A DNA stretch of 64,000 nt from Hyphomicrobiales bacterium. Its GTDB lineage: Bacteria > Pseudomonadota > Alphaproteobacteria > Rhizobiales > Xanthobacteraceae. The translations under genes were made by a program, and so were the position numbers. The notes beneath the pieces are model-generated. The model was given only the letters and a program-made list of their open reading frames with translations. It made no database searches and was not told the DNA's origin. Positions 4,452-40,968 of the stretch are shown here, in pieces (positions within the stretch are counted from its first letter, which is position 1; each line of letters begins with the position of its first letter). The stretch lies in NCBI GenBank assembly GCA_017305715.1, contig JAFKKG010000011.1, positions 248,001 to 312,000 of the forward strand. Direction: 5' to 3'.

Positions 4452-4463
4452 TGTTTAAGGTTC

Positions 4464-4550: not shown

Positions 4551-4663
4551 TCGTGAATCTCTATTTCTCGGGGCGCATTCCAATCCCAGCCGCGTCGTGC
4601 TGCTTCCCAATCAGCCGCTTTCATGAACACTGTTGCCTGTGAAACGGGACTGATTTCCAGCCG

Positions 4664-5296: not shown

Positions 5297-5346
5297 CATT
5301 GACTTGCCGCATTGACTTGGACGCCGGCTTGGCCGAATTGACTGCC

Positions 5347-6189
5347 ATGACAAGTACAACCAGACCCCCCGCCGCGTGCCTGATCGGATGGCCGGCCGCG
5401 CATTCGCGCTCGCCGCTGATCCATCATTACTGGTTGCGGACGCTCGGCATCGAAGGCGGCTACGTCATCGAAGCCGTGCCGCCCGACGAGTTCGGGGATT
5501 TCGTGTTCCGGCTGTCGCTGCGCGGCTTCGTCGGCGCCAACGTCACCATTCCGCACAAGGAGCGCGCGCTCGCCTTGTCGAAGCCGGACGCGCGCGCCCG
5601 CGCGGTCGGCGCCGCCAACACGCTGTGGTTTGCCGACGGCGAACTCCGCTCGACCAACACCGACGTCGAAGGTTTCATCAACAATCTCGACGCCTGCGCG
5701 CCCGGATGGGACAAGGCCGAGGATGCACTGGTGCTCGGCGCAGGCGGTGCGGCGCGTGCGGTGCTGTTCGGATTGATCGAACGCGGCATCAAGCGCATCC
5801 ATCTGGCCAACCGGACCGCGGCGCGCGCGCGCGCGCTGGCGGATCAATTCGGCGCCAGCGTGTTGCCGGCGCAATGGGATGCGGTGGATGCATTGCTGCC
5901 ACGCGCGGGACTTTTGGTGAACACGACTTCGCTCGGCATGCACGGCCAGCCCGCGCTGGAACTCGATGCCGCGCGCCTGCCGCAGAATGCGGTGGTCAAT
6001 GATCTGGTTTATGTGCCGCTGCAAACGCCGTTGCTGGCGGCCGCGGGTGCGCGTGGATTGCAGACCGCCGATGGGCTCGGCATGCTGCTGCACCAGGCGG
6101 TGCGCGGCTTTGAATTGTGGTTCGGCAAGCGGCCGCAAGTCACATCAGAACTTCGTGCGCTCGTCGAAGCCGATCTCAAAAAAGCTTGA
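5347..6189 (+). CDS. aroE: Shikimate dehydrogenase (AroE family)
   Basis: A 280-residue enzyme that reduces 3-dehydroshikimate to shikimate with NADPH in aromatic amino-acid synthesis. The substrate-binding half shows HSRSPLIHHYW and NVTIPHKE, whose lysine is the catalytic residue, then the partner aspartate in NTDVEG. The nucleotide-binding half has GAGGAARAV and the NRT motif that reads the NADPH phosphate. The end carries DGLGMLLHQA as in AroE. The start is the ATG at 5347; the frame is open far upstream but overlaps the DUF1275 gene and is not coding there. The usual alphaproteobacterial maf-aroE-coaE-dnaQ neighbours are absent, so this may be a second, paralogous AroE with an altered substrate range. 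Confidence 0.88.
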   Translation: MTSTTRPPAACLIGWPAAHSRSPLIHHYWLRTLGIEGGYVIEAVPPDEFGDFVFRLSLRGFVGANVTIPHKERALALSKPDARARAVGAANTLWFADGELRSTNTDVEGFINNLDACAPGWDKAEDALVLGAGGAARAVLFGLIERGIKRIHLANRTAARARALADQFGASVLPAQWDAVDALLPRAGLLVNTTSLGMHGQPALELDAARLPQNAVVNDLVYVPLQTPLLAAAGARGLQTADGLGMLLHQAVRGFELWFGKRPQVTSELRALVEADLKKA

Positions 6190-29026: not shown

Positions 29027-29181
29027 TTGCAGTAGAACCATCGGCGGTCTTGCTTGATGGCCGCCATCAAATCTCCACCGGGCCGCGTTGATGCTCCAGC
29101 GCGGCTTAGGTGCGTTCGTGTTATCGTCAACTTCAACTGGTTCGCTTGCAATGGAAGCCGACCGCAACGAGGAGAATTCAA

Positions 29182-29517
29182 ATGTTTATCGCGATGAACA
29201 GGTTTCAGGTGAAGCTGGGCCAGGAGCAGGCCTTCGAGACCGTGTGGGCGACGCGCGAATCCTATCTGGGCAACATGGCCGGATTCGTCGAATTCCATCT
29301 GCTCAAGGGCCCGGTCGCCGACGACCACACGCTGTATTCGTCGCACACCACCTGGGTCGACAAGGCAGCCTTCGAGGCCTGGACCCGTTCGGAAGAATTC
29401 CGCCGTGCCCATGCCCGCGCCGACAACAAGACCGGCGAAAGCCTCTATCTCGGCCATCCCAAGTTCGAGGGCTTCGAGGTGATCCAGAGCGAGCGCAAAA
29501 CCAGCGCCGCCGCCTGA
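29182..29517 (+). CDS. hmuQ: IsdG-family haem-degrading monooxygenase HmuQ
   Basis: A 111-residue protein that opens haem and frees its iron. The start is the ATG at 29182 with GAGGAG upstream. It has the ABM (antibiotic biosynthesis monooxygenase) fold, and N6, W67 and H77 fall at the spacing of the Asn-Trp-His triad of IsdG/IsdI. B. japonicum has two such enzymes, HmuQ and HmuD; the position beside hmuR matches HmuQ. It lies within the hmuR operon, 13 bases before hutX. Confidence 0.88.
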   Translation: MFIAMNRFQVKLGQEQAFETVWATRESYLGNMAGFVEFHLLKGPVADDHTLYSSHTTWVDKAAFEAWTRSEEFRRAHARADNKTGESLYLGHPKFEGFEVIQSERKTSAAA

Positions 29518-29530
29518 CCGGGAGGCCAGC

Positions 29531-30040
29531 ATGTCGAGCACGTCAGATCTCAAGGCGTATATGGCGGAGAATCCCGGCGCTGTTATCGAGGACGTTGCGC
29601 GCGAGCGCAACGTCACGCCGCGTGCCGTGATCGAGGCGATGCCGGAGGCGATGGTCCGCATCGGTCCCGGCAGCCAGTTCACCGCCGCGATGCAGGACAT
29701 CGCGCAATGGGGCGAGGTGACGATGATCGTGCACACCGATGACGCGATCTTCGAGTTCACCGGCGCGATTCCTGCGGGCGAGGTCGGCCGCGGCTATTTC
29801 AACCTGATGCAGCCCAAGGGACTGCACGGCCATCTCAGGCACGAACGCTGCGCGGCGGTCGCCTTCGTCGAACGTCCTTTCATGGGCAAGTCATCGGCCT
29901 TCATCGCCTTCATCAATGTCGATGGCGGCATCATGTTCAAGGTGTTCGTCGGCCGCGACGAGACGCGGGCGTTGCGCGGCGACCAGCTGAAGCGGTTTCA
30001 GCTCCTCGCGGGCAGCCTTGCTTCGGCAAAAGCGGCCTGA
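29531..30040 (+). CDS. hutX: Cytosolic haem carrier of the HutX/HuvX family
   Basis: A 169-residue cytoplasmic protein. LKAYMAENPGAVIEDVARERNVTPRAVIEAMPEAMV begins the HutX/HuvX fold, and IAQWGEVTMIVHTDDAIFEFTGAIP with RGYFNLMQPKGLHGHLR is the conserved core. Relatives bind haem in the cytoplasm and hand it to degradation enzymes, here most plausibly HmuQ. The gene has GGGAGG before its ATG and follows hmuQ by 13 bases. It takes the place of the larger HmuS protein, which is absent. Confidence 0.88.
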   Translation: MSSTSDLKAYMAENPGAVIEDVARERNVTPRAVIEAMPEAMVRIGPGSQFTAAMQDIAQWGEVTMIVHTDDAIFEFTGAIPAGEVGRGYFNLMQPKGLHGHLRHERCAAVAFVERPFMGKSSAFIAFINVDGGIMFKVFVGRDETRALRGDQLKRFQLLAGSLASAKAA

Positions 30041-30066
30041 CCATCGGCGTCAGCCGGGAGGTGACC

Positions 30067-30840
30067 ATGCAGCGGAATGTGCTCAAGATCGGGTTCGGCG
30101 CAGCGGTCGCAGCGCTTCCGGGTGCGGCTTTCGCCGCTAGCGATGCCGTGCTGCTGCCGCGCAATCTCTCGCCGTGGAACATGTTCGTGAATGCCGACAT
30201 CGTGGTGCAGGCCGTGATGGTCGGGCTGGCGTTTGCCTCCCTGATGACCTGGACGATCTGGCTTGCGAAAACCGTCGAAATCAGGCGCAAGACCGCGACC
30301 GCCAAGCGGCGGCTCGGCCTGCTCGAGACCGATACCGTGCTGGCCGACGTGGAAAAAAACTGCCGCGGCGGTGACGACGCGGTGGCGCAGATCGTGCAGT
30401 CCGCCGCGCGCGAGGCCAGCCTCTCCGGCGGCATCGCCGATGACGGCTTCAAGGAGCGGATCGCGCTGCGGCTGGAGCGGGTCGAGGCGGCGATGTCGCG
30501 GCAGATCGCGCGCGGCACCGGCGTTCTGGCGACCATCGGCGCGACCGCGCCGTTTGTCGGCCTGTTCGGCACGGTGTGGGGCATCATGAACGCCTTCATC
30601 GGCATTTCCGAGGCCCACACCACCAATCTCGCGGTGGTCGCCCCCGGCATCGCCGAGGCGCTGCTGGCGACCGCGCTGGGGCTGGTGGCGGCGATCCCAG
30701 CGGTCGTGATCTACAACCATCTGACGCGCACCATTTCAGCCCACCGCGCGCTGCTCGGCGACGCCTCCGCGATGGTGATGTTGCTGATCAGCCGCGAGGG
30801 CGATCGCGGCACATTCCAGTTGGCGCGCGCCGCGGAGTAA
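30067..30840 (+). CDS. exbB: Biopolymer transport protein ExbB
   Basis: A 257-residue inner-membrane protein that, with ExbD, uses proton flow to energise TonB. A cleavable-type N-terminus (GAAVAALPGAAFA) precedes a first helix (VVQAVMVGLAFASLMTWTIWLAK). Two further helices lie in the TonB-system signature LATIGATAPFVGLFGTVWGIMNAFIGI and EALLATALGLVAAIPAVVIYNHL. The start is taken as the ATG at 30067 (GGGAGG upstream); a GTG lies 6 bases before. exbD follows after only 3 bases. Confidence 0.94.
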   Translation: MQRNVLKIGFGAAVAALPGAAFAASDAVLLPRNLSPWNMFVNADIVVQAVMVGLAFASLMTWTIWLAKTVEIRRKTATAKRRLGLLETDTVLADVEKNCRGGDDAVAQIVQSAAREASLSGGIADDGFKERIALRLERVEAAMSRQIARGTGVLATIGATAPFVGLFGTVWGIMNAFIGISEAHTTNLAVVAPGIAEALLATALGLVAAIPAVVIYNHLTRTISAHRALLGDASAMVMLLISREGDRGTFQLARAAE

Positions 30841-30843
30841 ATC

Positions 30844-31287
30844 ATGGGCGCAAGACTCGGCACACGCGCTTCCTTCGGCCGCCCGCGCGGCGGCGACGAC
30901 CTTGCCGAAAACCACGAGATCAACGTCACGCCGTTCATCGACGTGATGCTGGTGCTGTTGATCATCTTCATGGTGGCCGCACCGCTTGCCACCGTCGATC
31001 TCGGCGTCGACCTGCCCGCCAGCGCCGTCGAGCCGCAGCCGCGTCCGGACAAGCCGGTGTTCGTCACCGTCAAGCCGGACCTGTCGGTCGCGGTCGGCGA
31101 GGACGTCATCGCGCGCGATACGCTGACCATGACGCTCGATAGTGCCACCAAGGGCCGCAAGGACGAGCGGATCTATCTGCGCGCCGACAAGGCGGTCAGC
31201 TATGGCGAGCTGATGGAGGTGATGAATCTGTTGCGCAACGCCGGCTATCTCAAGATCGCGTTGGTCGGTCTCGACGGACGAAGCTAG
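30844..31287 (+). CDS. exbD: Biopolymer transport protein ExbD
   Basis: A 147-residue protein with one membrane helix. INVTPFIDVMLVLLIIFMVAAP contains the conserved aspartate that carries the proton, and the periplasmic part holds DLPASAVEPQP and the usual IYLRADKAVSYGELMEVMNLLRNAGYLKIALVG. It acts with ExbB and TonB. It starts 3 bases after exbB. Confidence 0.94.
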   Translation: MGARLGTRASFGRPRGGDDLAENHEINVTPFIDVMLVLLIIFMVAAPLATVDLGVDLPASAVEPQPRPDKPVFVTVKPDLSVAVGEDVIARDTLTMTLDSATKGRKDERIYLRADKAVSYGELMEVMNLLRNAGYLKIALVGLDGRS

Positions 31288-31288
31288 C

Positions 31289-31333
31289 GCATGATCCGGA
31301 AAAGTGGGCACCGGTTTTCCGGCAAGATCATGC
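31289..31333. repeat. Dispersed palindrome (GCATGATC family), copy 1
   Basis: GCATGATC (31289-31296) pairs with GATCATGC (31326-31333), and inside CCGGAAAA pairs with TTTTCCGG. It fills the gap between exbD and tonB. A second copy lies at 53740-53785 and a half copy at 63591-63604. Confidence 0.75.
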
Positions 31334-31346
31334 GCAAACAAGATAG

Positions 31347-32186
31347 ATGGCCATGAACGCGTTCGCGCTGCACGATGTCAGCGATCACGCCGGGGCAAGG
31401 CGCTGGGGTACGTCGGGACTTGCGATCCTCGCCGCGCATGCCGCTGTCATTGCGCTGTTCATGAGCTGGCACACGCAGCGGCCGACGCCCGGCATCCATC
31501 TGCCGGCGATCATGGTCGACATGGCCCCGGTGTCGTCCTCGCCGCAGCCGACCCCGGCGGAACTCGCGCCAGGGCCGACCATGCAGCAGGCCGATGCTTC
31601 GCCGCCGGAAGAAGTCGCGCCGCAGAAGACGGTGATGGAGGAGATCACGCCGACGCCGCCACAGGACAAGCCGGAGGTTGCCGCGCCTCCGGAGCAGAAG
31701 CCGCAACCGACTCCGCCAAGGCCCGAGCCCGCGAAAATCATCCCGGAGCGGAAGCCGACACCGGCAAAACCAAAAGTGGTGCGCGCCGAAGCCAAAAAGC
31801 CGTCGGAAGCGCCGCCCGCGCCGCGCACGTCAGCCGCGCCCCGGGCCGAGCGCCGGGCGTCGGCGGCTTCCGCCGTCAGCGCAGGTGCTTCGGCATCGGC
31901 GATCGCATCCTACCGGCAGCTCGTCGCCGCGCATCTGCAGCGCTTCAAGCAGTATCCGGCGGGCGCCAAGGCCGCGGGCCAGCAGGGCGTTGCGCGCGTG
32001 AGCTTCACGCTCGGCCGCGGCGGGCAGGTGATGTCGAGCGGACTTGCCGGCTCGTCCGGCCATGCCGCGCTGGATGCCGAGACGGTGGCGATGGTGCGCC
32101 GCGCGCAACCATTCCCGGCATTTCCACCGGAGCTCCAACAGGCCTCGATGAGTTTCAGCGCGCCGGTGGCATTCCATATTCGCTAG
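31347..32186 (+). CDS. tonB: TonB energy-transducing protein
   Basis: A 279-residue protein that links the ExbBD motor to HmuR. A single N-terminal helix (about 22-40) anchors it, a long proline-, glutamate- and lysine-rich spacer (about 45-165) crosses the periplasm, and the C-terminal domain contacts the TonB box. That domain has YRQLVAAHLQRFKQYP, GVARVSFTLGRGGQV and AQPFPAFPPELQQ, the usual landmarks. ATGs at 31347 and 31353 are both possible starts. It ends the haem operon; the RiPP genes follow 336 bases later. Confidence 0.9.
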   Translation: MAMNAFALHDVSDHAGARRWGTSGLAILAAHAAVIALFMSWHTQRPTPGIHLPAIMVDMAPVSSSPQPTPAELAPGPTMQQADASPPEEVAPQKTVMEEITPTPPQDKPEVAAPPEQKPQPTPPRPEPAKIIPERKPTPAKPKVVRAEAKKPSEAPPAPRTSAAPRAERRASAASAVSAGASASAIASYRQLVAAHLQRFKQYPAGAKAAGQQGVARVSFTLGRGGQVMSSGLAGSSGHAALDAETVAMVRRAQPFPAFPPELQQASMSFSAPVAFHIR

Positions 32187-32377
32187 AAGCGTTCGCGGAG
32201 AGCATGCTTGACCTGCCAAAAAGCGCTGCTGCTTCGATTGGACGCATATCATCGCCGCCAACATCCGATCGGCGATGCCGCCTCATTAGTCACATCGATC
32301 CGCTTGCGAAGTACTTCTCGTCCCCGATCGAATGAAAATCTCGCCATCGCTCCTGCTTGAAGCAGGCGGCAGAAGTT

Positions 32378-32393
32378 TGTGTTGTAGATCACA
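32378..32393. promoter_or_regulatory. CRP/FNR-superfamily-like site upstream of the RiPP promoter
   Basis: TGTGT-N6-TCACA differs by one base from the TGTGA-N6-TCACA consensus of CRP-type activators. Its centre is about 70 bases before the predicted transcription start, a common activating distance. Two more TCACAC copies follow at 32403 and 32413. Confidence 0.5.
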
Positions 32394-32419
32394 CTAAGCA
32401 AGTCACACTAGGTCACACA

Positions 32420-32448
32420 TTGACGGCGAAGCTTAGCCGTCGCACAAT
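32420..32448 (+). promoter_or_regulatory. Predicted promoter of the RiPP operon
   Basis: TTGACG (5 of 6 matches to -35) and CACAAT (4 of 6 to -10) are 17 bases apart, the ideal spacing. Transcription would start near 32455, about 68 bases before the precursor ATG. Confidence 0.5.
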
Positions 32449-32459
32449 CGCCCAGTCGC

Positions 32460-32473
32460 GGCCAAGCTTGGCC
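32460..32473. promoter_or_regulatory. 14-bp perfect palindrome at the RiPP transcription start
   Basis: GGCCAAGCTTGGCC lies about 5-18 bases after the predicted start site. It could be an operator for a repressor or a small leader hairpin. Confidence 0.4.
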
Positions 32474-32522
32474 ACGCCTATTTCGAAACACGTTTTCTTT
32501 TTCTCCAAATTGGGAGTGACTC

Positions 32523-32879
32523 ATGGCACAGACCGACGCGGGCGATTGGATGCAGCAATGGAGCAAGATCGTTGAAAAAGCGTGGCACGACGACAAGTAC
32601 AAGAACCGCCTTGTGAGCGACACGCGAGCCGTCCTCAAGGAAGAAGGTCTGGAGCCCCCGCAAGGCGTCGAGGTCAAATTGGTAGAGGATACGCCGTCGG
32701 TGGTTCACCTGACATTGCCGGCCAAGATCGCCAGCGATATTTCCGAGAAGGATCTCGAGACGGTGGCGGGCGGCGGCAAGATCGGCGGCATCTGGTGGGG
32801 CGGATCGAATGTGCGCTTTAGCAGTCCGCTGACCGTCAACCAATTGCTCATCAGTTCGCTGCTCCGCTTTAATCGGTAG
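32523..32879 (+). CDS. RiPP precursor peptide with nitrile-hydratase-like leader (NHLP family)
   Basis: A 118-residue peptide precursor. Residues 9-66 resemble the alpha subunit of nitrile hydratase: a WSKIVEKAWHDDKYKNRLV helix, GLEPPQGVEVKLVEDT, then a hydrophobic VVHLTLP strand. This is the hallmark of NHLP-type leaders. DLETVAGGG (77-85) is the expected leader-core junction, with cleavage probably after G84. The core (85-118) has GKIGGIWWGG, then SNVRFSSPLTV and a hydrophobic NQLLISSLLRFNR tail. It has six Ser/Thr, two Trp and no Cys. The ATG at 32523 has GGGAGTG upstream. Maturation enzymes follow on the same strand. Confident as a precursor; the product is unknown. Confidence 0.88.
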   Translation: MAQTDAGDWMQQWSKIVEKAWHDDKYKNRLVSDTRAVLKEEGLEPPQGVEVKLVEDTPSVVHLTLPAKIASDISEKDLETVAGGGKIGGIWWGGSNVRFSSPLTVNQLLISSLLRFNR

Positions 32880-32930
32880 ATTTTACGCACGTCTTCCGCA
32901 GCGGAAGCAGATTGATTGCAACCGGCATGC

Positions 32931-32954
32931 GCGGCCGCGCTGGATCGCGGCCGC
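32931..32954 (+). promoter_or_regulatory. Strong hairpin between precursor and modification genes
   Basis: Perfect 9-bp arms GCGGCCGCG and CGCGGCCGC enclose 6 bases, in the 159-base gap after the precursor. No T-run follows. Such hairpins often protect the precursor mRNA and limit read-through, so that more precursor than enzyme is made. A smaller hairpin (CTTCC/GGAAG) lies at 32893-32907. Confidence 0.5.
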
Positions 32955-33038
32955 AGCCGGCCGCCTCCCACCATGCGTGGTCGGGCCGCTTCGTGGTTGC
33001 TGCTCGGCTGACGGCTCACTCGACGAGGTGGATCGGAT

Positions 33039-34292
33039 ATGTCCGATTTCGATTTTGCAGATTTGATCTGGCCGAACGATCCGGCTTCCTTTTTTCGTGA
33101 CACTTGGGAAAAGAAGCCGCTGGTCGTGTCGCGCAACCAGCCGAATTACTACGCCCGGCTTTTCTCGATGCGTGATGTCGACTCCATGGTCTATTTCACG
33201 CGGCCGAGGTTTTCCGGCATCCGGACCGAAACCACGCCGACCGATGCGCTGAGAGGAAATTTTCCTCACGACGAGCATCTCTTCTTCGAAGGACAAAACA
33301 ACGTCGCGGCGGTGTCCGGCCAATTCTCTCAAGGCAAGACCATCTTTGTACACAAGCTCGAACAGCGCTGGAAATCCGTCGCCACGTTGTGCCGGGACCT
33401 TGAGGCGACGTTTCATCACCCGGTCAATGCGAGCATGTTCCTGACGCCCAGGAATTCGCAGGGCGTGCCGGCCCATTTCGATGCAGTCGAAGTCTTCGTG
33501 CTGCAGCTCGAAGGCTCCAAGCACTGGCGGATCTACAAGCCCACCATCGATCTACCGCTGAAAGAAGCCTATGAGCCGATTGCCGGCGAGCAGGTCGGCG
33601 CGCCGATACACGAGGTCCATATCAAGGCCGGAGACCTGATGTACCTTCCGCGCGGCTTCATCCACGAGGCGTATGCGGCGGAAGAAACGTCGCTGCACAT
33701 CACGGTCGCGGTCTCGGTTTTCCGATGGGCGGACCTGATGCGGCTTGCGCTGGCCCGCGTGGCTGCCAATGACGTGCGTTTTCGGCAGGCGGTGCCGGTC
33801 GGGGTTCTCGGCAGCGGAGAAATATCCGACGCCGTGAGGGCGCAGTTCGAGGAATTGCTTCAGGCATTTTCCCAAGGCGGGCGCATCGAGGATGCGATGG
33901 CGGCGCTGAGCGATCAGTTCCTCAGCGACATGCCGGTGCTGCCGGGTGCGCATTTCCTTCCGCCGGAGGAGATCGACCGCATCGATATCGACACCGTCCT
34001 GGAAAAGCCCCGGGCGATGATCTGTCGGGTCATTCAGGAGGCGGCGACGGTCAGCATTCAGTTCCCCGGCAACCGTATGAGAGCCCCGAAGCAATTGGGG
34101 CCGGCGCTGGAATTTATCGCGAAAGCGTCGCGCTTTCCGGTGAGCGCCTTGCCCGGCGGTCTCAGCGACAATTCGAAGCTGACGCTCGCGAGGCGCCTGG
34201 TCCGCGATGGCCTGTTGAAGATCGCGGACCAACCAGGTGCCCGGCCGCGCCCTGCAACGGAAGAGTCCCCGGAAATTGTCCCGGTCAAGTGA
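33039..34292 (+). CDS. JmjC/cupin-type iron(II) oxygenase, probable RiPP-tailoring enzyme
   Basis: A 417-residue protein of the cupin-4 / ribosomal-oxygenase-like JmjC family. FFRDTWEKKPLVVSRNQPNYY (18-38) is the usual entry motif. PAHFDAVEVFVLQLEGSKHWRIY contains the metal-binding HxD (H146, D148) and a lysine/tryptophan patch for 2-oxoglutarate; LPRGFIHEAY gives the second histidine (H209). A helical C-terminal part follows. Relatives hydroxylate histidine or arginine side chains of ribosomal proteins or tRNA bases. Its position between the precursor and TfuA argues that here the substrate is the core peptide (inference). The ATG at 33039 follows GAGGTGG. Confidence 0.82.
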   Translation: MSDFDFADLIWPNDPASFFRDTWEKKPLVVSRNQPNYYARLFSMRDVDSMVYFTRPRFSGIRTETTPTDALRGNFPHDEHLFFEGQNNVAAVSGQFSQGKTIFVHKLEQRWKSVATLCRDLEATFHHPVNASMFLTPRNSQGVPAHFDAVEVFVLQLEGSKHWRIYKPTIDLPLKEAYEPIAGEQVGAPIHEVHIKAGDLMYLPRGFIHEAYAAEETSLHITVAVSVFRWADLMRLALARVAANDVRFRQAVPVGVLGSGEISDAVRAQFEELLQAFSQGGRIEDAMAALSDQFLSDMPVLPGAHFLPPEEIDRIDIDTVLEKPRAMICRVIQEAATVSIQFPGNRMRAPKQLGPALEFIAKASRFPVSALPGGLSDNSKLTLARRLVRDGLLKIADQPGARPRPATEESPEIVPVK

Positions 34293-34336
34293 CAGCCTTG
34301 TTTCATCCTCGCTCCTCGTCACCTACGGAGTAGCGT

Positions 34337-35704
34337 TTGCCGCCGCGATCGAAGCTGGCTCACTCCACGGCCGTGTTTCTCGGCCCGTCATTGCCATTCG
34401 CCGCAGCGGAAAAGATTCTACCGGCCGATTATTTTCCGCCCGCCGCGAGAGGCGACATCTACCGCATCATCGCGTCCGGCGTGAGAACCATCGTGCTCAT
34501 CGACGGCGTTTTTCACGGCACCCGCTCGGTCTGGCAACGCGAAATCCTGGATGCCCTCGGCGAGGGAATCGAAGTGCTTGGCGCATCCAGCATGGGAGCG
34601 CTTCGCGCCGCGGAGTTGAACGCTTTTGGAATGGTCGGCCACGGGACGATATTTGAATGGTACAGAGGCGGCCTGATCGACGGGGACGATGAGGTCGCGC
34701 TTCTCCACGGACCGCAGGAGCTCGATTTCTGTGCGCTGTCCGAGCCGCTGGTCAATATCCGCCGGACGCTGCAAAATGCGGTGCACGACTGGTGCATGAC
34801 CGAGGATCAGGCCCGGCAGCTTTTGGACTACGCCAAGCGAACCTACTACCCCGACAGATCCTATCGCCACCTTCTCTCATGCCCGGCGCTCGAGAAATGG
34901 CCTGACCGCAGGGACATCGAGCAGTACATCCTGACCCGGGCGATCGACCAGAAGCGGCTCGATGCCATTGGCGTCCTTTGCCGTTGCGCGGAAGGGCAAG
35001 CGGCGAGAAGGCCTGTCGTGGTAAAGTCCGGGGAATCCTGCTCGGATGTCTGGCGCCTGGAGCGACTGCGTCTCACTGGCTTCTTCAGCGGTTCGGAGAT
35101 TGTTTCGGGAAACGACGTCCTGTCGGAGGCCGCAAAGGAACCGGTTCTTGTTGCGCAAATGCAGGCCGTGCTGGCCGGGCGGGCCTTTGTCTTGGATCTG
35201 GCCAGGCGAAAACAACGATCCGTTCCGGATCATTTGCTGGAATTCTACACAAGGCGGTGGGAAACAACCCTCGATATTGTCCCTGGTCCGGACTGGCTGC
35301 ATGCCAATGGCCTTACATATCCCTCGTACCGGCGGCTGCTGGCGCAGCACTTTCTCGTCGACTGGCTGCTCGATCAGGAGACGTCAGATCCCACGACGAG
35401 ATCGCCATCCACGAACGGTGAAGCGGATGATGCCGATCTTGTCGTCCGAATGCCGCAACGGCGCCTGCTTGCCGACTGGGCGCGAGAGAACGGCATTGCC
35501 TGCCCATCCGATGCTTTGGACAAATACACCGGTGAGATCGACGCCGCCGGCGACTCGCCGGGGGACTGCGCGCTGACCGCCTGGATGATGGAAAAAGGGC
35601 CGCACTATTTCGGCCTGGATTGGTGTTTTGAAAGCACGCTTCTGGAAGAGCTGCAGATCACCGGACTTGCTGCCAGGCTCATTGCGAAAGCGCGCAGCAC
35701 ATGA
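34337..35704 (+). CDS. TfuA-like protein, YcaO partner in RiPP maturation
   Basis: A 455-residue protein with an N-terminal TfuA domain (about 10-215). The start AVFLGPSLPFAAAEKILPADYFPPAARGDIYRII and IVLIDGVFHGTRSVWQREILDALGEGIEVLGASSMGALRAAEL are the family signatures. TfuA proteins partner YcaO enzymes, notably in thioamide formation, where they are thought to supply sulfur or assist the chemistry. The C-terminal 230 residues are not recognised and make it longer than simple TfuA proteins; that part may bind the leader peptide. It starts with TTG at 34337, with GGAG at 34327-34330 upstream, and its end overlaps ycaO by 4 bases. Confidence 0.85.
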   Translation: MPPRSKLAHSTAVFLGPSLPFAAAEKILPADYFPPAARGDIYRIIASGVRTIVLIDGVFHGTRSVWQREILDALGEGIEVLGASSMGALRAAELNAFGMVGHGTIFEWYRGGLIDGDDEVALLHGPQELDFCALSEPLVNIRRTLQNAVHDWCMTEDQARQLLDYAKRTYYPDRSYRHLLSCPALEKWPDRRDIEQYILTRAIDQKRLDAIGVLCRCAEGQAARRPVVVKSGESCSDVWRLERLRLTGFFSGSEIVSGNDVLSEAAKEPVLVAQMQAVLAGRAFVLDLARRKQRSVPDHLLEFYTRRWETTLDIVPGPDWLHANGLTYPSYRRLLAQHFLVDWLLDQETSDPTTRSPSTNGEADDADLVVRMPQRRLLADWARENGIACPSDALDKYTGEIDAAGDSPGDCALTAWMMEKGPHYFGLDWCFESTLLEELQITGLAARLIAKARST

Positions 35705-36861
35705 TCGTACGCAAGGCCCATTACGGGGGAACGCATCGCGTATTGTCGCCCAGCGACACGCTCGCCAGAATAGAACCCCATCTGTCCGCCATCGGCGTCA
35801 CGCGCTGCGCGGATGTTACCGGCCTCGATCGTATCGGCATTCCCGTGTTCTGCGCGATCAGGCCCCGGGGCAAGATGATTCAGGTTACCAACGGCAAGGG
35901 GCTTGGTCACATCGACGCCCGGGTTTCCGCCTTGATGGAGGCGCTCGAAATATTTCATGCCGAGAACCTCCCGAAGGCCGCGATAAGAAGAGCCAGCCTG
36001 CAGTCGATGCGCGCGGAGGGCAGGGTTGTCGTTGATCCCGAATTGCTGCCGCATTACCGGCATGAAACCTACTTCGCCCCGGAATTCTTGATCGACTGGA
36101 CGGTCGCCGAAGAACTGGTGACGGCGCAGCAGGTCTGGCTGCCGGCAAGTTCGGTATTCTTCTTCAGTTCACCCAGGCTTCACGATGCGTCCTCCAACGG
36201 GCTGGCAAGCGGCAATGAATTGACCGAGGCCACGCTGCATGCGCTCTATGAGTTGATCGAGCGTGATGCCATATCGCGTCTTGGCGCTGACGGCCGCATT
36301 CGCCTCGATCCGCAACGCTGCGAATGCGTCGATCTCGATACGCTGGCCGAGGGGCCGGTGAGGGAACTGGTCTCAGCCCTCGTCAAGGCCGACATCACGC
36401 TGAAGCTGATGAGGGTAAAAGGCAGCACGCCGGTCCATACGTTCTGGGCTGTCCTGCTCGACAGGGCGCCGCTCGCCCACGCCTCGACCGTCAACACCGG
36501 TTATGGCGCGCACCTCAGTCCGGAGGTTGCGGCCACCCGGGCGATCACGGAAGCCGCGCAGTCGAGGTTGACCTATATTCATGGCGCCCGTGAAGACCTG
36601 CACGAAGAATCGTATAATTCGGATCGCGCGCAAGCGAAGCTTTTTGCCGTTTTCGATCGGCTCGAAGGCACGGCCGATTGGAGATATCTCGAGGACAGGT
36701 CCTCGGACGATTTGAGCAGGGACTACCGCTATGTCGTCGATTCCCTGGCCGAGGCCGGATACCGCAAAATATATCGCGTGGATTTGACGCGGCCGCCATT
36801 CCAGCTTCCGGTGGTGAAAGTCCTGGTCCCGGGTCTGAAATTCAAGGAGCGGCTGTTTTGA
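35701..36861 (+). CDS. ycaO: YcaO-domain enzyme, RiPP backbone-modifying
   Basis: A 386-residue YcaO enzyme, which uses ATP to activate peptide backbone amides. NGKGLGHIDARVSALMEALEIFHAE (64-88) and NELTEATLHALYELIERDA (172-190) supply the ATP- and magnesium-binding glutamates (E80, E83, E184, E187), and RAITEAAQSR (280-289) is the third conserved motif. The C-terminus ends FKERLF and lacks the proline-rich PxPxP tail of azoline-forming cyclodehydratases. No C-protein or ocin-ThiF partner is encoded nearby. Together with the adjacent TfuA this favours thioamidation of the core peptide. It is coupled to tfuA by an ATGA overlap and ends the RiPP operon. Confidence 0.9.
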   Translation: MIVRKAHYGGTHRVLSPSDTLARIEPHLSAIGVTRCADVTGLDRIGIPVFCAIRPRGKMIQVTNGKGLGHIDARVSALMEALEIFHAENLPKAAIRRASLQSMRAEGRVVVDPELLPHYRHETYFAPEFLIDWTVAEELVTAQQVWLPASSVFFFSSPRLHDASSNGLASGNELTEATLHALYELIERDAISRLGADGRIRLDPQRCECVDLDTLAEGPVRELVSALVKADITLKLMRVKGSTPVHTFWAVLLDRAPLAHASTVNTGYGAHLSPEVAATRAITEAAQSRLTYIHGAREDLHEESYNSDRAQAKLFAVFDRLEGTADWRYLEDRSSDDLSRDYRYVVDSLAEAGYRKIYRVDLTRPPFQLPVVKVLVPGLKFKERLF

Positions 36862-36902
36862 CCCGGTGGCGATCCGCTTCATGTGGCGTCGCCGTCGCGC
36901 CC

Positions 36903-38144
36903 TCAGACCTTCTTCGCGGTACGGCCAAGCAGCAGGCACAGAAAAACCGACAACATGGCGGCCGACAGGCCGAGCGACCAGTGGATGCCGATCCCGGCGC
37001 CGATGACGCCGACAGTGATGCCGCTGAAGGCGCGCATGCCGAGCCCGGCCATGTTGAACAGCCCGACGACGCGGCCGCGGATGTCGGAAGGCGCATTCAG
37101 CTGCACCAGGGTCTGCGCCATCGTGTTGAACGACAATTCGAAGAAGCCGGCGGCAAACAGCAACGCGATCGCGAGCGGGTAAATGCCGACCGATGCGAAG
37201 GCGAGCAGCGACAGCGACCACAGGATGGCCAGAACGATGGCGGTCTGCGGCGTCGCCCGGAGCCGTCCCCAGGCTTCCAGCGCGATGCCCGCGAGCAGCG
37301 CACCGGCGGCGTCGGCGGCCAGCAGCACGCTATACGCCACACCGGGATCGCCGTGGCCGAGATCGATGGCAAAGCCCGGCATCTGGGCGTGATAGGCGTT
37401 GCCGATCATGAAGGAGGTCAGTCCGGCGAGCAGCGTCATCGATGTCAGCAGCCGATGCGTGCCGATGGCGCGGATGGTCTGCACGATGTCGGCCAGTCCC
37501 CGGACGGCGAGGCGTTTTGCCACCGCGCCCTTGGCGCTGATCGGCGCCCAGAACAGCCAGAGCAGCATCGGCAGATAAAACACCGTGTTGAGGATGATGC
37601 CGTGCGACGGGCCAAGAGACAGCATGATGACGCCGCCGACGGCAGGCCCGACCAGGATTCCCAGATAGCGCGCCATCGCGTTCAGCCGCACCGCGCTCGG
37701 CAGGTCGGCCGGGCCGACGATGTCGTAGAGCAGCAGCTGGTTCGGCGTCTGCCACAGCACGCCGGCGCAGCCGTGGATCACCAGCAGCAGCATCGCGTGC
37801 CACATTTGCAGCGTGTCGGTGATGAAGAAGACGCCCCATCCCGCCGATACCGCGATGAACAACAGCATGCCGCACTGGATGATGCGCCGCGGGTCGAAGC
37901 GGTCGGCGAGCCCTCCCACGGCCACGGAGAAAAACAGGAATGGCAGCCAGTGCGACAGCACCGCAAAGCCCGCCAGCGCGGGTGAATGGAATTTCTGGAA
38001 CACCACCCAATAGCTGATCACATGCTCGATATTGTCGGCCATCATGGCCAGCACGTAGGCGAAAAACTGCGCCCGATAGGGACGCGACTTCATGGCCGCG
38101 AACGAACTGGATGCCGCGGGTTTCGTCGAAGGCTCGGAGTTCAA
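36903..38144 (-). CDS. MFS transporter (EntS-like MFS_3), possible RiPP exporter
   Basis: A protein of about 413 residues with 12 predicted helices, from the MFS_3 branch that contains the enterobactin exporter EntS. SHWLPFLFFSVAVGGLADRFDPRRIIQ is the loop 2-3 motif, and APSDIRGRVVGLFNMAGLGMRAFSG the conserved C-terminal loop. The start is taken as TTG at 38144 because GGGTGA lies upstream; TTG at 38174 and ATG at 38093 are alternatives. It is convergent with ycaO, only 41 bases apart. Export of the RiPP is an attractive guess, but as a gene on the opposite strand it may be unrelated. Confidence 0.72.
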   Translation of the reverse strand: MNSEPSTKPAASSSFAAMKSRPYRAQFFAYVLAMMADNIEHVISYWVVFQKFHSPALAGFAVLSHWLPFLFFSVAVGGLADRFDPRRIIQCGMLLFIAVSAGWGVFFITDTLQMWHAMLLLVIHGCAGVLWQTPNQLLLYDIVGPADLPSAVRLNAMARYLGILVGPAVGGVIMLSLGPSHGIILNTVFYLPMLLWLFWAPISAKGAVAKRLAVRGLADIVQTIRAIGTHRLLTSMTLLAGLTSFMIGNAYHAQMPGFAIDLGHGDPGVAYSVLLAADAAGALLAGIALEAWGRLRATPQTAIVLAILWSLSLLAFASVGIYPLAIALLFAAGFFELSFNTMAQTLVQLNAPSDIRGRVVGLFNMAGLGMRAFSGITVGVIGAGIGIHWSLGLSAAMLSVFLCLLLGRTAKKV

Positions 38145-38248
38145 GTGGTCACCCAGGTAAGGCCGGTTCGGCAATTGCGATGCTGCCGAACCGGTATCTG
38201 GATTCCGTTCGCGCCGATAGACGGGCGCTTAGCGCATTTCGGACTGGC

Positions 38249-39133
38249 TCAGGCGCTGAAATAATGGGGCTGATCGAGATCGGCGAGCAGTCCCGGCTGT
38301 TCCGGTTTCCATCCCAGCGCCGACCTCGTCCGCACGCTCGAACTCGGAATGTCCATGCCGGCAAATCTCGCGAACCAGCCAAAATGCCCAGCCGCTTCTT
38401 CCGGCGTCTTGGAGACGACCGGCACGCCGAGCCGGCGGCCGATCACTTCGGTGATCGCCCTGAACGGGACGCCCTCGTCGTCGACGGCGTGATAGGGGCC
38501 GCTTTTGACACCCTGTTCAAGCGCAAGCCGATAGAGGCGGGCGGCATCGAGCCGATGCACCCCGGGCCAGCGGTTGCTGCCGTCGCCGATATAGGCCGCG
38601 ACGCCCTTCTCGCGCGCCAGATGGATCAGATGCGGGACGAAACCATGATCGCCCGCGCCATGGGTCGAGGGAGCGAGGCGCACGGCGGATGCGCGCACCC
38701 CGCGCGCTGCGACAGCCGAGGCCGCGATCTCGGACAGGCGAGGAAAATCCGGCGATGCCTTGTCCGCTTCGGTCGCGATCCGGCCCGGCGCAATCAACGC
38801 AAGGCCCGACGTTACCAGCATGGGGCGCTCGGAGCCTTCGAGCACGGCACCCATCGCTTTGATCGCGTCCCGATCGTCGGCGCAATTCTGCGCGAATTTG
38901 GAAAAGTCATGGTTGAAGGCGGTGTGGATCACCGCGTCCGCCTGGCGCGCGCCGTCGCGCAGGCTTTGCAGATATTCGAGCGCGCCGCGATGGACTTCCG
39001 CCCCCATCGCCTTGAGTGTTTCGGCGCCGGTGTCGGAGCGGGCGAGGCCCAGCACCCGGTGGCCCGATGTGACGAGTTCGCGGACGATAGCGGAGCCGAC
39101 GAATCCGGTCGCGCCGGTGAGGAATACACGCAT
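38249..39133 (-). CDS. NAD-dependent epimerase/dehydratase (SDR family)
   Basis: A 294-residue extended short-chain dehydrogenase. MRVFLTGATGFVGSAIVRELVTSG is the Rossmann motif TGxxGxxG. The usual YxxxK pair is not evident, and LVTSGLALIAPG occupies the catalytic-serine region. Such proteins (YwnB/Atu-type) act as reductases or epimerases on unknown small substrates. The ATG at 39133 follows GGAG closely. It is divergent from an XRE-family regulator at 39242, a common pairing in which the regulator controls the enzyme. Confidence 0.8.
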   Translation of the reverse strand: MRVFLTGATGFVGSAIVRELVTSGHRVLGLARSDTGAETLKAMGAEVHRGALEYLQSLRDGARQADAVIHTAFNHDFSKFAQNCADDRDAIKAMGAVLEGSERPMLVTSGLALIAPGRIATEADKASPDFPRLSEIAASAVAARGVRASAVRLAPSTHGAGDHGFVPHLIHLAREKGVAAYIGDGSNRWPGVHRLDAARLYRLALEQGVKSGPYHAVDDEGVPFRAITEVIGRRLGVPVVSKTPEEAAGHFGWFARFAGMDIPSSSVRTRSALGWKPEQPGLLADLDQPHYFSA

Positions 39134-39196
39134 GTGAGTCTCCAAGGCTGATTGGAAGGTTGCCCGGAGACGGATATCGGGTAGACTTTCATTCTA

Positions 39197-39225
39197 TTAA
39201 AGTAGTGATGTTATCGTGGTATAAT
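39197..39225 (+). promoter_or_regulatory. Predicted promoter of the XRE regulator
   Basis: TTAAAG, 17 bases and the extended -10 TGGTATAAT lie 16 bases before the ATG at 39242. The -10 is a perfect TATAAT in an otherwise GC-rich genome. Confidence 0.5.
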
Positions 39226-39241
39226 AATCAACAGGATCAGG

Positions 39242-40063
39242 ATGTCGGTTGAGGCTGATAATCTGCTGGGGACTTACCTCAGGGATCGCCGCGTCCGGCT
39301 CGATCCCGCCGCGCTCGGATTCGCCGTGGGGCGAAGGCGAACGCCGGGGTTGCGCCGGGAAGAGGTCGCCCAGCGCGCCAACATCAGTCCGACCTGGTAC
39401 ACATGGCTGGAGCAGGGGCGGGGCGGCGCGCCCTCGGCCGATGTGTTGGACCGGATCGCGGCAGCGCTGATGCTGACCGACGTCGAACGCGAACACGTCT
39501 TCCTGCTCGGCCTCGGTCGTCCACCCGAAGTCCGTTACAAGGCCGCCGGGAACGTCACCCCCCGTTTGCAACGCCTGCTCGATGCGTTCGAGGTCAGCCC
39601 CGCTCTGATCAAGACCGCCACCTGGGAGGTTGTTGCCTGGAATCGCGCGGCGGCGGCGGTGCTGACCGACTATGGCGCCCTGCCGCCGGACCAGCGCAAC
39701 ATCCTGCGTTTGATCTTCTGCGACCCCAGAGTCCGCGCTGCGCAAACCGATTGGGAAAGCGTGGCCCGTTTCGTGGTCGGTGCGTTCCGAGCGGATGCGG
39801 CGCGCGCGGGCGCGGTTTCCGAAGTCGGCCAACTCGTCGACGAGCTTTGCAGGCGCAGCCCCGAATTCGAGGCGTTATGGCGCGACAACAACGTTCAGGT
39901 CCACGGCGAGGGCGTCAAACGCCTGCGGCATCCGATCCTCGGCCCGATCGGGCTGGAATATTCCGCGTTCGGCGTCGATGGCCGGTCCGACCTCAGCATG
40001 GTCGTCTACAATCCAGCCACCCCCGCGGATGCCGACCTGATCCGGTCACTGATCGCGTCCTAA
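39242..40063 (+). CDS. XRE-family regulator with MmyB-like ligand-binding domain
   Basis: A 273-residue regulator. The N-terminus has a helix-turn-helix: LGTYLRDRRVRLDP...RTPGLRREEVAQRANISPTWYTWLEQGRGGAPSADVLDRIAAAL, with the RRxPGLRREEVA motif of the MmyB type. The rest (about 105-273) is the PAS-like domain of that family (LLDAFEVSPALIKTATWEVVAWNRAA), which may bind fatty acids or other small molecules. It is divergent from the SDR epimerase at 38249 and probably regulates it. AGGA precedes the ATG. Confidence 0.88.
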   Translation: MSVEADNLLGTYLRDRRVRLDPAALGFAVGRRRTPGLRREEVAQRANISPTWYTWLEQGRGGAPSADVLDRIAAALMLTDVEREHVFLLGLGRPPEVRYKAAGNVTPRLQRLLDAFEVSPALIKTATWEVVAWNRAAAAVLTDYGALPPDQRNILRLIFCDPRVRAAQTDWESVARFVVGAFRADAARAGAVSEVGQLVDELCRRSPEFEALWRDNNVQVHGEGVKRLRHPILGPIGLEYSAFGVDGRSDLSMVVYNPATPADADLIRSLIAS

Positions 40064-40086
40064 TGGTGGATGGCAGGTCGATTTGG

Positions 40087-40440
40087 TTAGAGGATCGCCT
40101 CGATCCCTTTGCGCCGGATGACGTTGAGAAGTACCAAAGCGGGGCCGGTTGGATGTTTGTCGCCGCGTTCTAGCTGCGACACGTAGCCAGCCGTTACGTT
40201 GAGGTAACGAGCGAAAACCGCTTGACTTAGTTTCGCTTCCTCGCGGATCGCCTTGATGTCGGCACCCGAAATTTCAGCCGTGACGGCAGCAGGGATGTTT
40301 GAGACGCCGAGATGCCGCATGGTGATTTTGTCGCGAGCCGCCTTTGTCAACACACCGCTCTTGTGCATGTCATGCGCCGTTTCAAGCAGTTCCCTTGTGA
40401 GTCGGCTGGTCTTTGTTTTCTTTTTTGCTTTCGTTGCCAT
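40087..40440 (-). CDS. higA: HigA-type antitoxin with XRE helix-turn-helix
   Basis: A 117-residue DNA-binding protein. ADIKAIREEAKLSQAVFARYLNVTAGYVSQLERGDKHPTGPALVLLNVI is a typical helix-turn-helix of antitoxins of the HigA/RelB-like type. The N-terminal part (KAKKKTKTSRLTRELLETAHDMHKSG) is lysine-rich. The ATG is at 40440. It follows the toxin gene and overlaps it by 59 bases, the toxin-first order seen in HigBA systems. It should neutralise the toxin and bind the palindrome at 40820. Confidence 0.85.
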   Translation of the reverse strand: MATKAKKKTKTSRLTRELLETAHDMHKSGVLTKAARDKITMRHLGVSNIPAAVTAEISGADIKAIREEAKLSQAVFARYLNVTAGYVSQLERGDKHPTGPALVLLNVIRRKGIEAIL

Positions 40441-40810
40441 AGTGCACCTCAATCAAAGTTCCATCGCGTATCGCCTGGTCGATCTTCTGTTTGCTCGCGT
40501 CCAGAAATGAAGCTGCGATTTCACGCAAACTAAGCAGTTCGCCACTACTTATGTTCTCACGCTCGTTTTTGGCAAAGGCAAAGAGATAGACGGCACGATC
40601 GGAGCCGAAACCGATCAGCATCCGAAATCCCCCTCTCTTGCCCTGCCCCGGACGAGCGACCCGCTGCTTGATAACCTTGCCGCCGAGATCGGCGTCGATC
40701 AGGCCACGTTTGGCACGGTCAACCGCCTCAACAAGGGCCGCATCGCCGATGCCATGCTGGCGAGTAAACTTCGCCAGTGTTTTCGTCTTGAAAATACGCA
40801 CAGGCGTCAC
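40382..40810 (-). CDS. higB: RelE/HigB-like toxin
   Basis: A 142-residue protein of the RelE/ParE-superfamily toxins. The fold appears in FKTKTLAKFTRQHGIGDAALVEAVDRAKRGLIDADLGGKVIKQRVARPGQGKRGGFRMLIGF, with the basic surface and the late AVYLFAFAKNERENIS segment that matches HigB-type mRNA interferases. It starts with GTG at 40810 and its end overlaps the antitoxin gene. The antitoxin is co-transcribed. It is larger than typical RelE toxins (90-110 aa) because of a C-terminal helical extension. Confidence 0.82.
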   Translation of the reverse strand: MTPVRIFKTKTLAKFTRQHGIGDAALVEAVDRAKRGLIDADLGGKVIKQRVARPGQGKRGGFRMLIGFGSDRAVYLFAFAKNERENISSGELLSLREIAASFLDASKQKIDQAIRDGTLIEVHYGNESKKENKDQPTHKGTA

Positions 40811-40819
40811 TCTAGTTCC

Positions 40820-40839
40820 ATAAACTATAGTTTATAGTT
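40820..40839. promoter_or_regulatory. Palindromic operator of the toxin-antitoxin pair
   Basis: ATAAACTATAGTTTAT (40820-40835) is a 16-bp perfect palindrome, overlapped by a second dyad (AACTATA 40823-40829 / TATAGTT 40833-40839). It is only 10 bases before the toxin start and spans a likely -10 box. This is the classic position for antitoxin autorepression. Confidence 0.7.
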
Positions 40840-40968
40840 CTATAATTCAAGGTAATTATGCGCAAGAATCGTGCGTTGGAGGGCGATAGGGCTGTTAGCG
40901 TGAGATACCTATTCTACCCTTGCACCGGGTTTTCGCGATTTTGAAGGCCTGCCACGCTGACGCAGGCG

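What the first reader, a model, noticed from the sequence alone, without database searches (positions are those of the whole stretch)
32378..36861. Compact RiPP locus: NHLP-type precursor, JmjC oxygenase, TfuA and YcaO in one operon
Seen: a 118-aa peptide with a nitrile-hydratase-alpha-like leader and GGG junction, followed on the same strand by a cupin/JmjC protein with HFD...H metal ligands, a TfuA protein and a YcaO protein overlapping it by 4 bases. Known: YcaO with TfuA modifies peptide backbones, and NHLP leaders direct such enzymes. Inference: the product is a thioamidated and perhaps hydroxylated peptide. I do not recall a characterised product with exactly this gene set.
Basis: partly seen in the sequence, partly recalled or inferred. 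Interest (0 to 1): 0.88.

Follow-up and report, generated by a model that had tools for sequence, protein, structure and literature searches.

The report
Four-gene peptide-modifying cassette in Bradyrhizobium
A small, apparently mobile set of four genes in a soil bacterium looks built to make a short peptide and to mark it in two ways, a sulfur-for-oxygen swap in the backbone and an added hydroxyl on a side chain; the peptide itself has not been seen.

Summary
Confirmed: window 32523-36861 encodes an NHLP-leader peptide, a JmjC_2 oxygenase, a long TfuA and a YcaO on one strand, the last two overlapping by 4 bases. The same four genes and promoter recur in Bradyrhizobium sp. JYMT SZCCT0428 at another site; only window 32398-36892 matches that 21-kb locus. 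All four genes are under purifying selection. Two relatives lack the surrounding 8.8-kb stretch. It is rare: 2 of 265 genomes of the genus. On an Azospirillum B510 plasmid the nearest outside YcaO (51%) lies among eight NHLP precursors, a JmjC_2 protein, LanM and an NHLP exporter. The window's genome carries the NHLP export pair on another contig. The JmjC protein resembles ribosomal oxygenases (NO66, MINA53, YcfD/RoxA). Best reading: a RiPP thioamidated by TfuA-YcaO and hydroxylated by JmjC; both chemistries are inferred. NHLP with TfuA and NHLP with cupin-4 are in print, and a thioamide beside a hydroxylated residue is known from StdA (made with an MNIO); no held paper contains both TfuA and JmjC. 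The YcaO plus RoxA-type enzyme pair mirrors the adjacent thioamide and hydroxyarginine of E. coli uL16, a testable idea. New variant of a known kind.

The parts
32398..36892 (+). Conserved cassette (homologous block shared with Bradyrhizobium sp. JYMT SZCCT0428)
   Evidence: blastn pieces of 81-83% identity to L032 9397-13961; nothing else of the 64-kb window matches the 21-kb L032 at E<=1e-3
32402..32418 (+). Two GTCACAC direct repeats 10 bp apart just upstream of the promoter; possible activator site (inferred)
   Evidence: both copies read TCACACTAG[GA]TCACACATTGAC; this string occurs once in the own genome at up to 3 mismatches
32420..32448 (+). sigma-70-like promoter TTGACG-N17-CACAAT
   Evidence: scan: 1 found, mean 1.0 in shuffles, so weak alone; L032 has TTGACT-N17-CAAAAT in the same place
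32523..32879 (+). Precursor peptide, 118 aa: NHLP leader (about 1-84), GG junction, core GKIGGIWWGGSNVRFSSPLTVNQLLISSLLRFNR
   Evidence: TIGR03793 2e-21; 75% identical to the L032 precursor over aligned residues
33039..34292 (+). JmjC_2 (ribosomal-oxygenase type) oxygenase, 417 aa, with a C-terminal winged-helix-like domain in the model
   Evidence: PF08007 5.3e-28; MINA53 2e-38, NO66 4e-30; model and Foldseek
34337..35704 (+). TfuA, long form, 455 aa
   Evidence: PF07812 1.1e-44 over residues 56-175; 6xp8 1.2e-43 over 12-214
35701..36861 (+). YcaO, 386 aa, overlapping TfuA by 4 bases
   Evidence: PF02624 2.5e-71; MJ1094 6pe3 1e-37; tree with B510 and Mycetohabitans
32188..40968 (.). Stretch absent from two relatives: cassette plus MFS transporter, NAD-epimerase-like gene, MmyB-like regulator and an HTH gene with an overlapping small gene
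   Evidence: in G019 the match to tonB (to 32187) is followed about 100 bases on by the homologue of 40969; in G023 about 30 bases on by that of 44453

Best explanation
The cassette makes a ribosomally synthesised, post-translationally modified peptide (RiPP). Its own promoter drives precursor, JmjC, TfuA and YcaO as one transcript. The NHLP leader recruits the enzymes. YcaO activates a backbone amide of the core with ATP, and TfuA helps to supply sulfide, giving a thioamide; conserved Gly (IGGI, WGG) or the residue after a conserved Arg are the likeliest sites. The JmjC enzyme, a ribosomal-oxygenase relative, adds a hydroxyl to a core side chain, most likely a conserved Arg (in V/I-R-F/W or LLRFNR). 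The NHLP-type C39 exporter encoded on another contig then cuts after VAGG and exports the core. Shown here: gene set, families, conservation, two genomic sites, exporter genes. Inferred: transcription as one unit, both chemistries, sites, order of steps, cleavage and export.
For: Family hits over cut-off. The same four genes at another site with dS 0.54, 0.51, 0.45, 0.53 and dN/dS 0.31, 0.13, 0.27, 0.20 in gene order. The ends of the core (KIGGI.WGG and SLLRFNR) are kept. The closest outside YcaO (B510, 51%) sits among 8 NHLP peptides with a JmjC_2 protein. The own genome has TIGR03796 (1060 bits, cut-off 853) and TIGR03794 (293, cut-off 156) side by side on contig C40, and its only NHLP match over the cut-off is the cassette's. 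JmjC ligands and K161 are invariant in 11; the fold matches NO66, MINA53 and YcfD. Precedents, passages seen: YcaO-TfuA thioamidates RiPPs such as StdA (PMC13174530); JmjC BipG hydroxylates a peptidyl Orn (PMC12707348); RoxA hydroxylates uL16 Arg81 and YcaO thioamidates Met82 (PMC13063428).
Against: No product, transcript or modified peptide is known. The classes of characterised TfuA-YcaO RiPPs listed in PMC13174530 do not include an NHLP one. NO66 and MINA53, the closest solved relatives of the JmjC, are His hydroxylases, and the window's core has no His. TfuA and YcaO fall below the McrA-type equivalog cut-offs (218 of 235; 244 of 365). Leader and core have the same dN/dS (0.31, 0.30), so the core's faster change is not relaxed or diversifying selection in particular. 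The exporter is unlinked, and whether it is common in the genus, or present in the second species, was not tested. The cassette is rare.
Confidence: 0.7

Rival explanations
1. The YcaO forms azolines on Ser/Thr of the core (an NHLP azoline peptide, as with MprC), with TfuA only an accessory; JmjC hydroxylates.
For: An azoline-forming YcaO acts on NHLP leaders (PMC12455567, passages); the core holds Ser and Thr.
Against: The core has no Cys; no E1-like or dehydrogenase gene lies in the four-gene cassette; the YcaO C-terminus (..VLVPGLKFKERLF) lacks the PxPxP end that I recall for azoline formers; among whole-length NCBIfam matches the best are the McrA-thioglycine models.
Confidence: 0.1
2. The modified precursor is not cut or exported but stays in the cell as a modified protein, or the enzymes act on another protein such as uL16 and the NHLP protein is an adaptor.
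For: No peptidase or exporter within the cassette; the JmjC is a ribosomal-oxygenase relative.
Against: GG junction and a RiPP leader over its cut-off; an NHLP exporter pair exists in the genome; leader and core are both under purifying selection.
Confidence: 0.12
3. A non-functional passenger on an insert.
For: Rare (2 of 265 genomes); lies in a stretch absent from two relatives; GC3 0.71-0.77 against 0.80-0.89 for three heme-operon genes.
Against: All four genes are intact in both copies with dN/dS 0.13-0.31, and the promoter is conserved.
Confidence: 0.08

Closest known systems
TfuA-YcaO thioamidated RiPPs (thioviridamide-like, thiovarsolins, thioamidated thiopeptides, nocathioamides; list of PMC13174530, passages)
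   Same: TfuA and YcaO beside a small precursor
   Different: No NHLP class in that list; the search for papers holding both TfuA and JmjC gave 0
StdA (PMC13174530, passages)
   Same: YcaO-TfuA thioamide directly before a hydroxylated residue in one RiPP
   Different: Hydroxylation is by an MNIO on homocitrulline made by a carbamoyltransferase; no JmjC or NHLP (those terms have 0 occurrences in the main text)
NHLP precursors with tfuA in Actinobacteria (Network 7 of PMC6511847, passages)
   Same: Nitrile-hydratase-like precursors near tfuA genes, predicted
   Different: Actinobacteria; 'cupin' has 0 occurrences in the main text; product unknown
NHLP plus cupin-4 gene cluster families of sponge symbionts (PMC9426513, passages)
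   Same: NHLP domain with a cupin-4 enzyme; TfuA-like enzymes are listed among those of the NHLP/Nif11 clusters
   Different: The passage does not say that any one of the four cupin-4 families also has TfuA; figures and supplements were not seen, so it is not excluded
Azospirillum sp. B510 pAB510a locus (L064)
   Same: NHLP precursors, JmjC_2, TfuA then YcaO (YcaO 51%; TfuA 50% over window residues 13-210)
   Different: Eight precursors, LanM, zinc dehydrogenase-like gene and linked NHLP exporter; its JmjC is shorter and 24% identical
E. coli uL16 double mark: RoxA (Arg81) and YcaO (Met82), PMC13063428
   Same: A ribosomal-oxygenase JmjC and a YcaO modify one substrate at adjacent residues
   Different: No TfuA; a folded ribosomal protein is the substrate; not a RiPP
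Biphenomycin-type JmjC/cupin hydroxylases BipG and PbsQ (PMC12707348, PMC12257519, passages)
   Same: JmjC/cupin hydroxylase acting on a RiPP core
   Different: Acts on Orn made by an arginase; MNIO and B12-rSAM pathway

Membership tests
NHLP-leader RiPP | NHLP leader over curated cut-off with Gly-Gly junction | tested here: met
   TIGR03793 75.6 bits, cut-off 50.9, residues 14-84; TVAGGG
NHLP-leader RiPP | Leader more conserved than core | tested here: met
   dN 0.133 leader, 0.278 core, over 85 and 28 codons; dN/dS is the same, 0.31 and 0.30
NHLP-leader RiPP | NHLP exporter available | tested here: met
   TIGR03796 and TIGR03794 on contig C40, not linked to the cassette
Classical proteusin (polytheonamide type) | Radical SAM epimerase (recalled as typical) | tested here: not met
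   none among the four cassette genes; not filed as a classical proteusin
TfuA-YcaO thioamidated RiPP | TfuA and YcaO side by side with a precursor | tested here: met
   repeated in L032
TfuA-YcaO thioamidated RiPP | Thioamide in the product | not testable with these tools
   needs mass spectrometry
TfuA-YcaO thioamidated RiPP | ThiS-like sulfur carrier in the genome | not tested
   no search of the own genome was made
McrA-thioglycine TfuA/YcaO pair | Scores over the NCBIfam equivalog cut-offs NF033432 and TIGR03266 | tested here: not met
   218 of 235.2 and 244 of 365 bits
Azoline-forming YcaO peptides | E1-like partner or fused RRE domain | tested here: not met
   no such gene among the four; YcaO (386 aa) matches PF02624 only
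Ribosomal-oxygenase type JmjC hydroxylase | HxD...H ligands and 2OG-site Lys in a JmjC fold | tested here: met
   H146, D148, H209, K161 invariant in 11 (the role of K161 is recalled); Foldseek NO66 1e-23, MINA53 1e-22, YcfD 9e-14 from a model of mean pLDDT 66
Ribosomal-oxygenase type JmjC hydroxylase | Acts on a ribosomal protein | not testable with these tools
   operon context argues for the precursor instead
[quoted passage not shown]
   JmjC 330-389 is modelled as three strands, a helix, a short strand, a three-residue helix and a helix; ribosomal oxygenases have a winged helix there too (recalled); binding not tested

The most novel reading that the evidence does not exclude
The RiPP carries, at one core Arg, the same double mark as the uL16 loop near the peptidyl transferase centre: a hydroxy-Arg made by a RoxA-like JmjC next to a thioamide made by YcaO, here with TfuA. 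The core holds [V/I]-R-[F/W]-[S/G] in both species, against Arg81-Met82-Gly83-Lys84 in uL16. If so, a ribosomal-protein modification pair has been taken over, or independently rebuilt, as a mobile RiPP pathway, and the product might mimic that loop and act on translation.
Probability: 0.15. Interest if true: 0.85.

Novelty: new variant of a known kind. Interest (0 to 1): 0.5.

Why it matters
It is a minimal gene set, one precursor and three enzymes, that would combine TfuA-YcaO thioamidation with JmjC hydroxylation on an NHLP precursor; I found no paper on this enzyme set, although a thioamide next to a hydroxylated residue is known from StdA by other enzymes. The two near-isobaric +16 Da chemistries can be separated by accurate mass. 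It would test whether a ribosomal-oxygenase-type JmjC and a YcaO cooperate at one site, as on uL16. TfuA-YcaO clusters of Proteobacteria are numerous by genome mining, while in 2021 all known products came from Actinobacteria (PMC8120280, passages).

Tried and rejected
Link to heme uptake: the cassette lies directly behind tonB of a heme-uptake operon in the window, but 0 of the 15 other genomes whose tonB neighbourhood I read has any of its genes within 1.5 kb (20 of 41 genomes matched, and I left out the short matches of E>=5e-6). In G012, the second species, tonB and the cassette are on different contigs. Rejected as functional linkage.

MFS gene 36903-38174 as dedicated exporter: it converges on the operon but lies outside the conserved block. 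Not excluded, but weaker than the NHLP exporter on C40.

Rfam families in 32150-37000: none. RNA fold behind YcaO: not significant (z -0.99). PHROGs: matches for the JmjC only, of unknown function. Phage collection: no precursor match.

First AlphaFold job on two sequences failed (pLDDT 30). The second used seven sequences (pLDDT 66); Foldseek rmsd values are about 20 A for NO66, so domain placement is not trustworthy.

His hydroxylation as for NO66/MINA53: there is no conserved His in the core, so I favour Arg; Asn and others are not excluded.

Limits: the genome-contig scan used only two short peptide patterns and can miss divergent copies; genome samples of order, class and phylum were drawn from larger groups; two of the loci read for neighbours were only 4.6 and 5.3 kb (L118, L129).

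Full report
OBSERVATION. Each scores over its curated cut-off. The genome is a Bradyrhizobium by inference: a genome of the same genus, G012, has the cassette on a contig of 126,536 bases with JmjC at 106665, and the named scan returned Bradyrhizobium sp. JYMT SZCCT0428 NODE_24, a contig of the same length, with JmjC at the same place.

A CONSERVED, MOVABLE UNIT. Against the SZCCT0428 locus L032 (21 kb), the 64-kb window matches only within 32398-36892, in three pieces of 81-83% identity. The ends lie 125 bases before the precursor ATG and 31 after the YcaO stop. The four genes share a similar synonymous divergence (dS 0.54, 0.51, 0.45, 0.53) and low dN/dS (0.31, 0.13, 0.27, 0.20), as expected if they travelled and were kept as a set. 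The upstream piece holds TTGAC[GT]-N17-CA[CA]AAT with two TCACAC repeats 10 bp apart just before it, in both copies; the consensus scan by itself is no better than shuffles (1 found, mean 1.0). The repeat-promoter string occurs once in the own genome at up to 3 mismatches.

INSERTION. In G019 the match to the window stops at the end of tonB (32187) and resumes about 100 bases on with the homologue of 40969; in G023 it resumes about 30 bases on with that of 44453. The window stretch 32188-40968 is therefore an insert, or was lost there. It holds the cassette, an MFS transporter, an epimerase-like gene, an MmyB-like regulator and an HTH gene with an overlapping small gene. No exact direct repeat longer than 10 bases was shared by the two ends compared. 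Cassette GC3 is 0.71-0.77, against 0.80-0.89 for TBDR, exbB and tonB; other genes of the insert vary (MFS 0.87, the small gene 0.59). The cassette's JmjC occurs in 2 of 265 genomes of the genus (an earlier draw gave 2 of 242).

THE PRECURSOR. The leader matches TIGR03793 and ends DISEKDLETVAGGG. An I-SEKD-L stretch occupies the place of the L(X)4L motif studied in other NHLP leaders (PMC12455567, passages; the assignment to this peptide is mine). The two cores are GKIGGIWWGGSNVRFSSPLTVNQLLISSLLRFNR and HKIGGIFWGGTHIRWGGGLTVANSLLRFNR. Shared are KIGGI, WGG, an Arg after V/I and before F/W, LTV, and SLLRFNR. Neither has Cys, and the window's core has no His.

TfuA AND YcaO. The TfuA N-terminal part matches the solved TfuA 6xp8 (residues 12-214). 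Long TfuA forms (about 438-495 aa, estimated from the match) occur in 11 of 24 loci measured, the window not counted. YcaO is nearest in solved structures to MJ1094. In a tree of 26 YcaO proteins the window, L032, Azospirillum B510 and Mycetohabitans rhizoxinica fall on one side of a 100/100 branch. Those four have the order TfuA-YcaO; the 21 other loci with both genes have YcaO-TfuA, and one locus (L126) shows no TfuA. The tool warns that long branches (L063 = Mycetohabitans, L126) meet near the window, so this grouping is less sure than its support. A MoaD/ThiS protein and MoeB lie near TfuA-YcaO in Mycetohabitans and in L124, 2 of 25 loci; PMC13063428 (passages) says that TfuA works with thiocarboxylated ThiS-like carriers.

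WHO ELSE HAS THE SET. TfuA at E<=1e-40 occurs in 19 of 297 genomes sampled from the order, own genome included. In those 19 plus G012, NHLP reached its cut-off in 3 of 20 (G000, G012, G856), and in G856 it lies on another contig than TfuA. JmjC_2 matched in 8 of 20 but lay beside TfuA only in G000 and G012 (coordinates compared). I then read 20 loci (the 16 non-own places and 4 of the 19 non-own places; two are under 6 kb) plus L015, L062, L063, L064 and L065. NHLP and JmjC were found in 2 of 25: L015 (the second Bradyrhizobium) and L064. L064, Azospirillum B510 pAB510a, has eight NHLP peptides, TfuA then YcaO (51%), a JmjC_2 protein (5.6e-17; 24% identical to the window's), LanM (TIGR03897) and an NHLP exporter (TIGR03796) within about 20 kb. 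In that genome family 1 of 82 matched at E<=1e-70, and by its coordinates that one is B510 itself. So the association is rare but reaches beyond Bradyrhizobium. JmjC proteins of this kind also sit beside other leader peptides: in L020 beside a small ORF that looks Nif11-like to me, and on Pseudanabaena pPg_03 near Nif11 peptides, LanM and an NHLP exporter. Against generality: of the 11 other JmjC matches in the phylum sample (12 of 398 matched), none had TfuA, YcaO or the precursor within the 10-16 kb fetched.

JmjC. Sequence search finds MINA53 (2e-38), NO66 (4e-30), YxbC (2e-9) and YcfD (5e-6). An AlphaFold model from seven sequences (mean pLDDT 66; most blocks of the JmjC core and the C-terminal domain 69-90, the helices between them near 60) matches NO66, MINA53 and YcfD in Foldseek, with about 20 A global rmsd. 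Residues 330-389 resemble the three-strand, three-helix order that defines an RRE in PMC12710340, but the middle helix has only three residues and a short strand precedes it. That paper reports RREs fused to JmjC PF08007 in fish and algae, with bacterial homologues in RiPP-like contexts (passages). Ribosomal oxygenases have a winged helix in that place as well (recalled), so leader binding is not shown.

EXPORT. The only PF03412 (C39 peptidase) match in the genome is on contig C40. It is an NHLP exporter (TIGR03796, 1060 bits against 853), with its secretion protein TIGR03794 beside it. The genome's only NHLP match over the cut-off is the cassette's precursor; the two others lie in one 219-aa frame and look like a nitrile hydratase alpha subunit. 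Cleavage after VAGG by this exporter is the simplest route. Whether the second Bradyrhizobium has the pair, and how common it is in the genus, was not tested.

HOW IT PROBABLY WORKS. The leader presents the core; YcaO-TfuA makes a thioamide; JmjC hydroxylates a side chain; the exporter trims and secretes. The closest parallel in enzyme kinds: on E. coli uL16, RoxA hydroxylates Arg81 and YcaO thioamidates Met82, and the two genes interact genetically (PMC13063428, passages). The closest in product: StdA, with a YcaO-TfuA thioamide before a bis-hydroxylated residue, hydroxylated by an MNIO (PMC13174530, passages). The core segment V/I-R-F/W-S/G resembles R-M-G-K of uL16 only loosely; this is post hoc and untested.

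LITERATURE. NHLP precursors near tfuA (PMC6511847), 2,326 unique TfuA-type clusters, among them Bradyrhizobium ones with other precursors (PMC8120280), and NHLP with cupin-4 (PMC9426513) are in print (passages seen). Full-text search for TfuA with JmjC: 0 papers. TfuA with cupin: 2 papers, the sponge survey (passages seen) and a Mycobacterium gene-transfer paper that I did not open. TfuA with proteusin: 6 papers, of which I saw passages of two, PMC9426513 and PMC10676384, neither describing this set there. At least four of thioamid, proteusin, TfuA, hydroxylase, Bradyrhizobium: 0 papers. The library is open-access only and no supplement was read, so absence is provisional. Verdict: a new variant of a known kind.

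Noticed in passing
window 26651-32186: Heme-uptake operon: TonB-dependent heme receptor, HmuQ, HutX, ExbB, ExbD, TonB, directly upstream of the cassette.
   Followed up: yes
window 40087-40810: HTH protein and an overlapping small gene that looks RelE/HigB-like to me (no NCBIfam match), a possible toxin-antitoxin pair inside the insert.
   Followed up: partly
window 36903-40063: MFS transporter, NAD-epimerase-like gene and MmyB-like regulator in the same insert, outside the conserved cassette.
   Followed up: partly
L064 (Azospirillum sp. B510 pAB510a 1250000-1275000): Apparent chimeric cluster: eight NHLP peptides, LanM, zinc dehydrogenase-like gene, TfuA-YcaO, JmjC_2 and NHLP exporter; the record has no annotation in the collection.
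   Followed up: partly
L020 3309-8013 (G573): Small ORF that looks Nif11-like beside a JmjC protein and a 1048-aa gene (LanM-like by eye, not scanned).
   Followed up: no
L066 7974-9043 (Tistrella mobilis pTM2): Three tandem NHLP precursors beside a cyclic-peptide exporter and siderophore uptake genes; no RiPP modifying enzyme is named in the annotation of the 16-kb stretch.
   Followed up: no
L145 (G000:C40:280500-289500) 2211-5700: NHLP exporter pair; I saw no leader peptide among the ORFs of the 9 kb around it, so its native cargo is unknown.
   Followed up: partly
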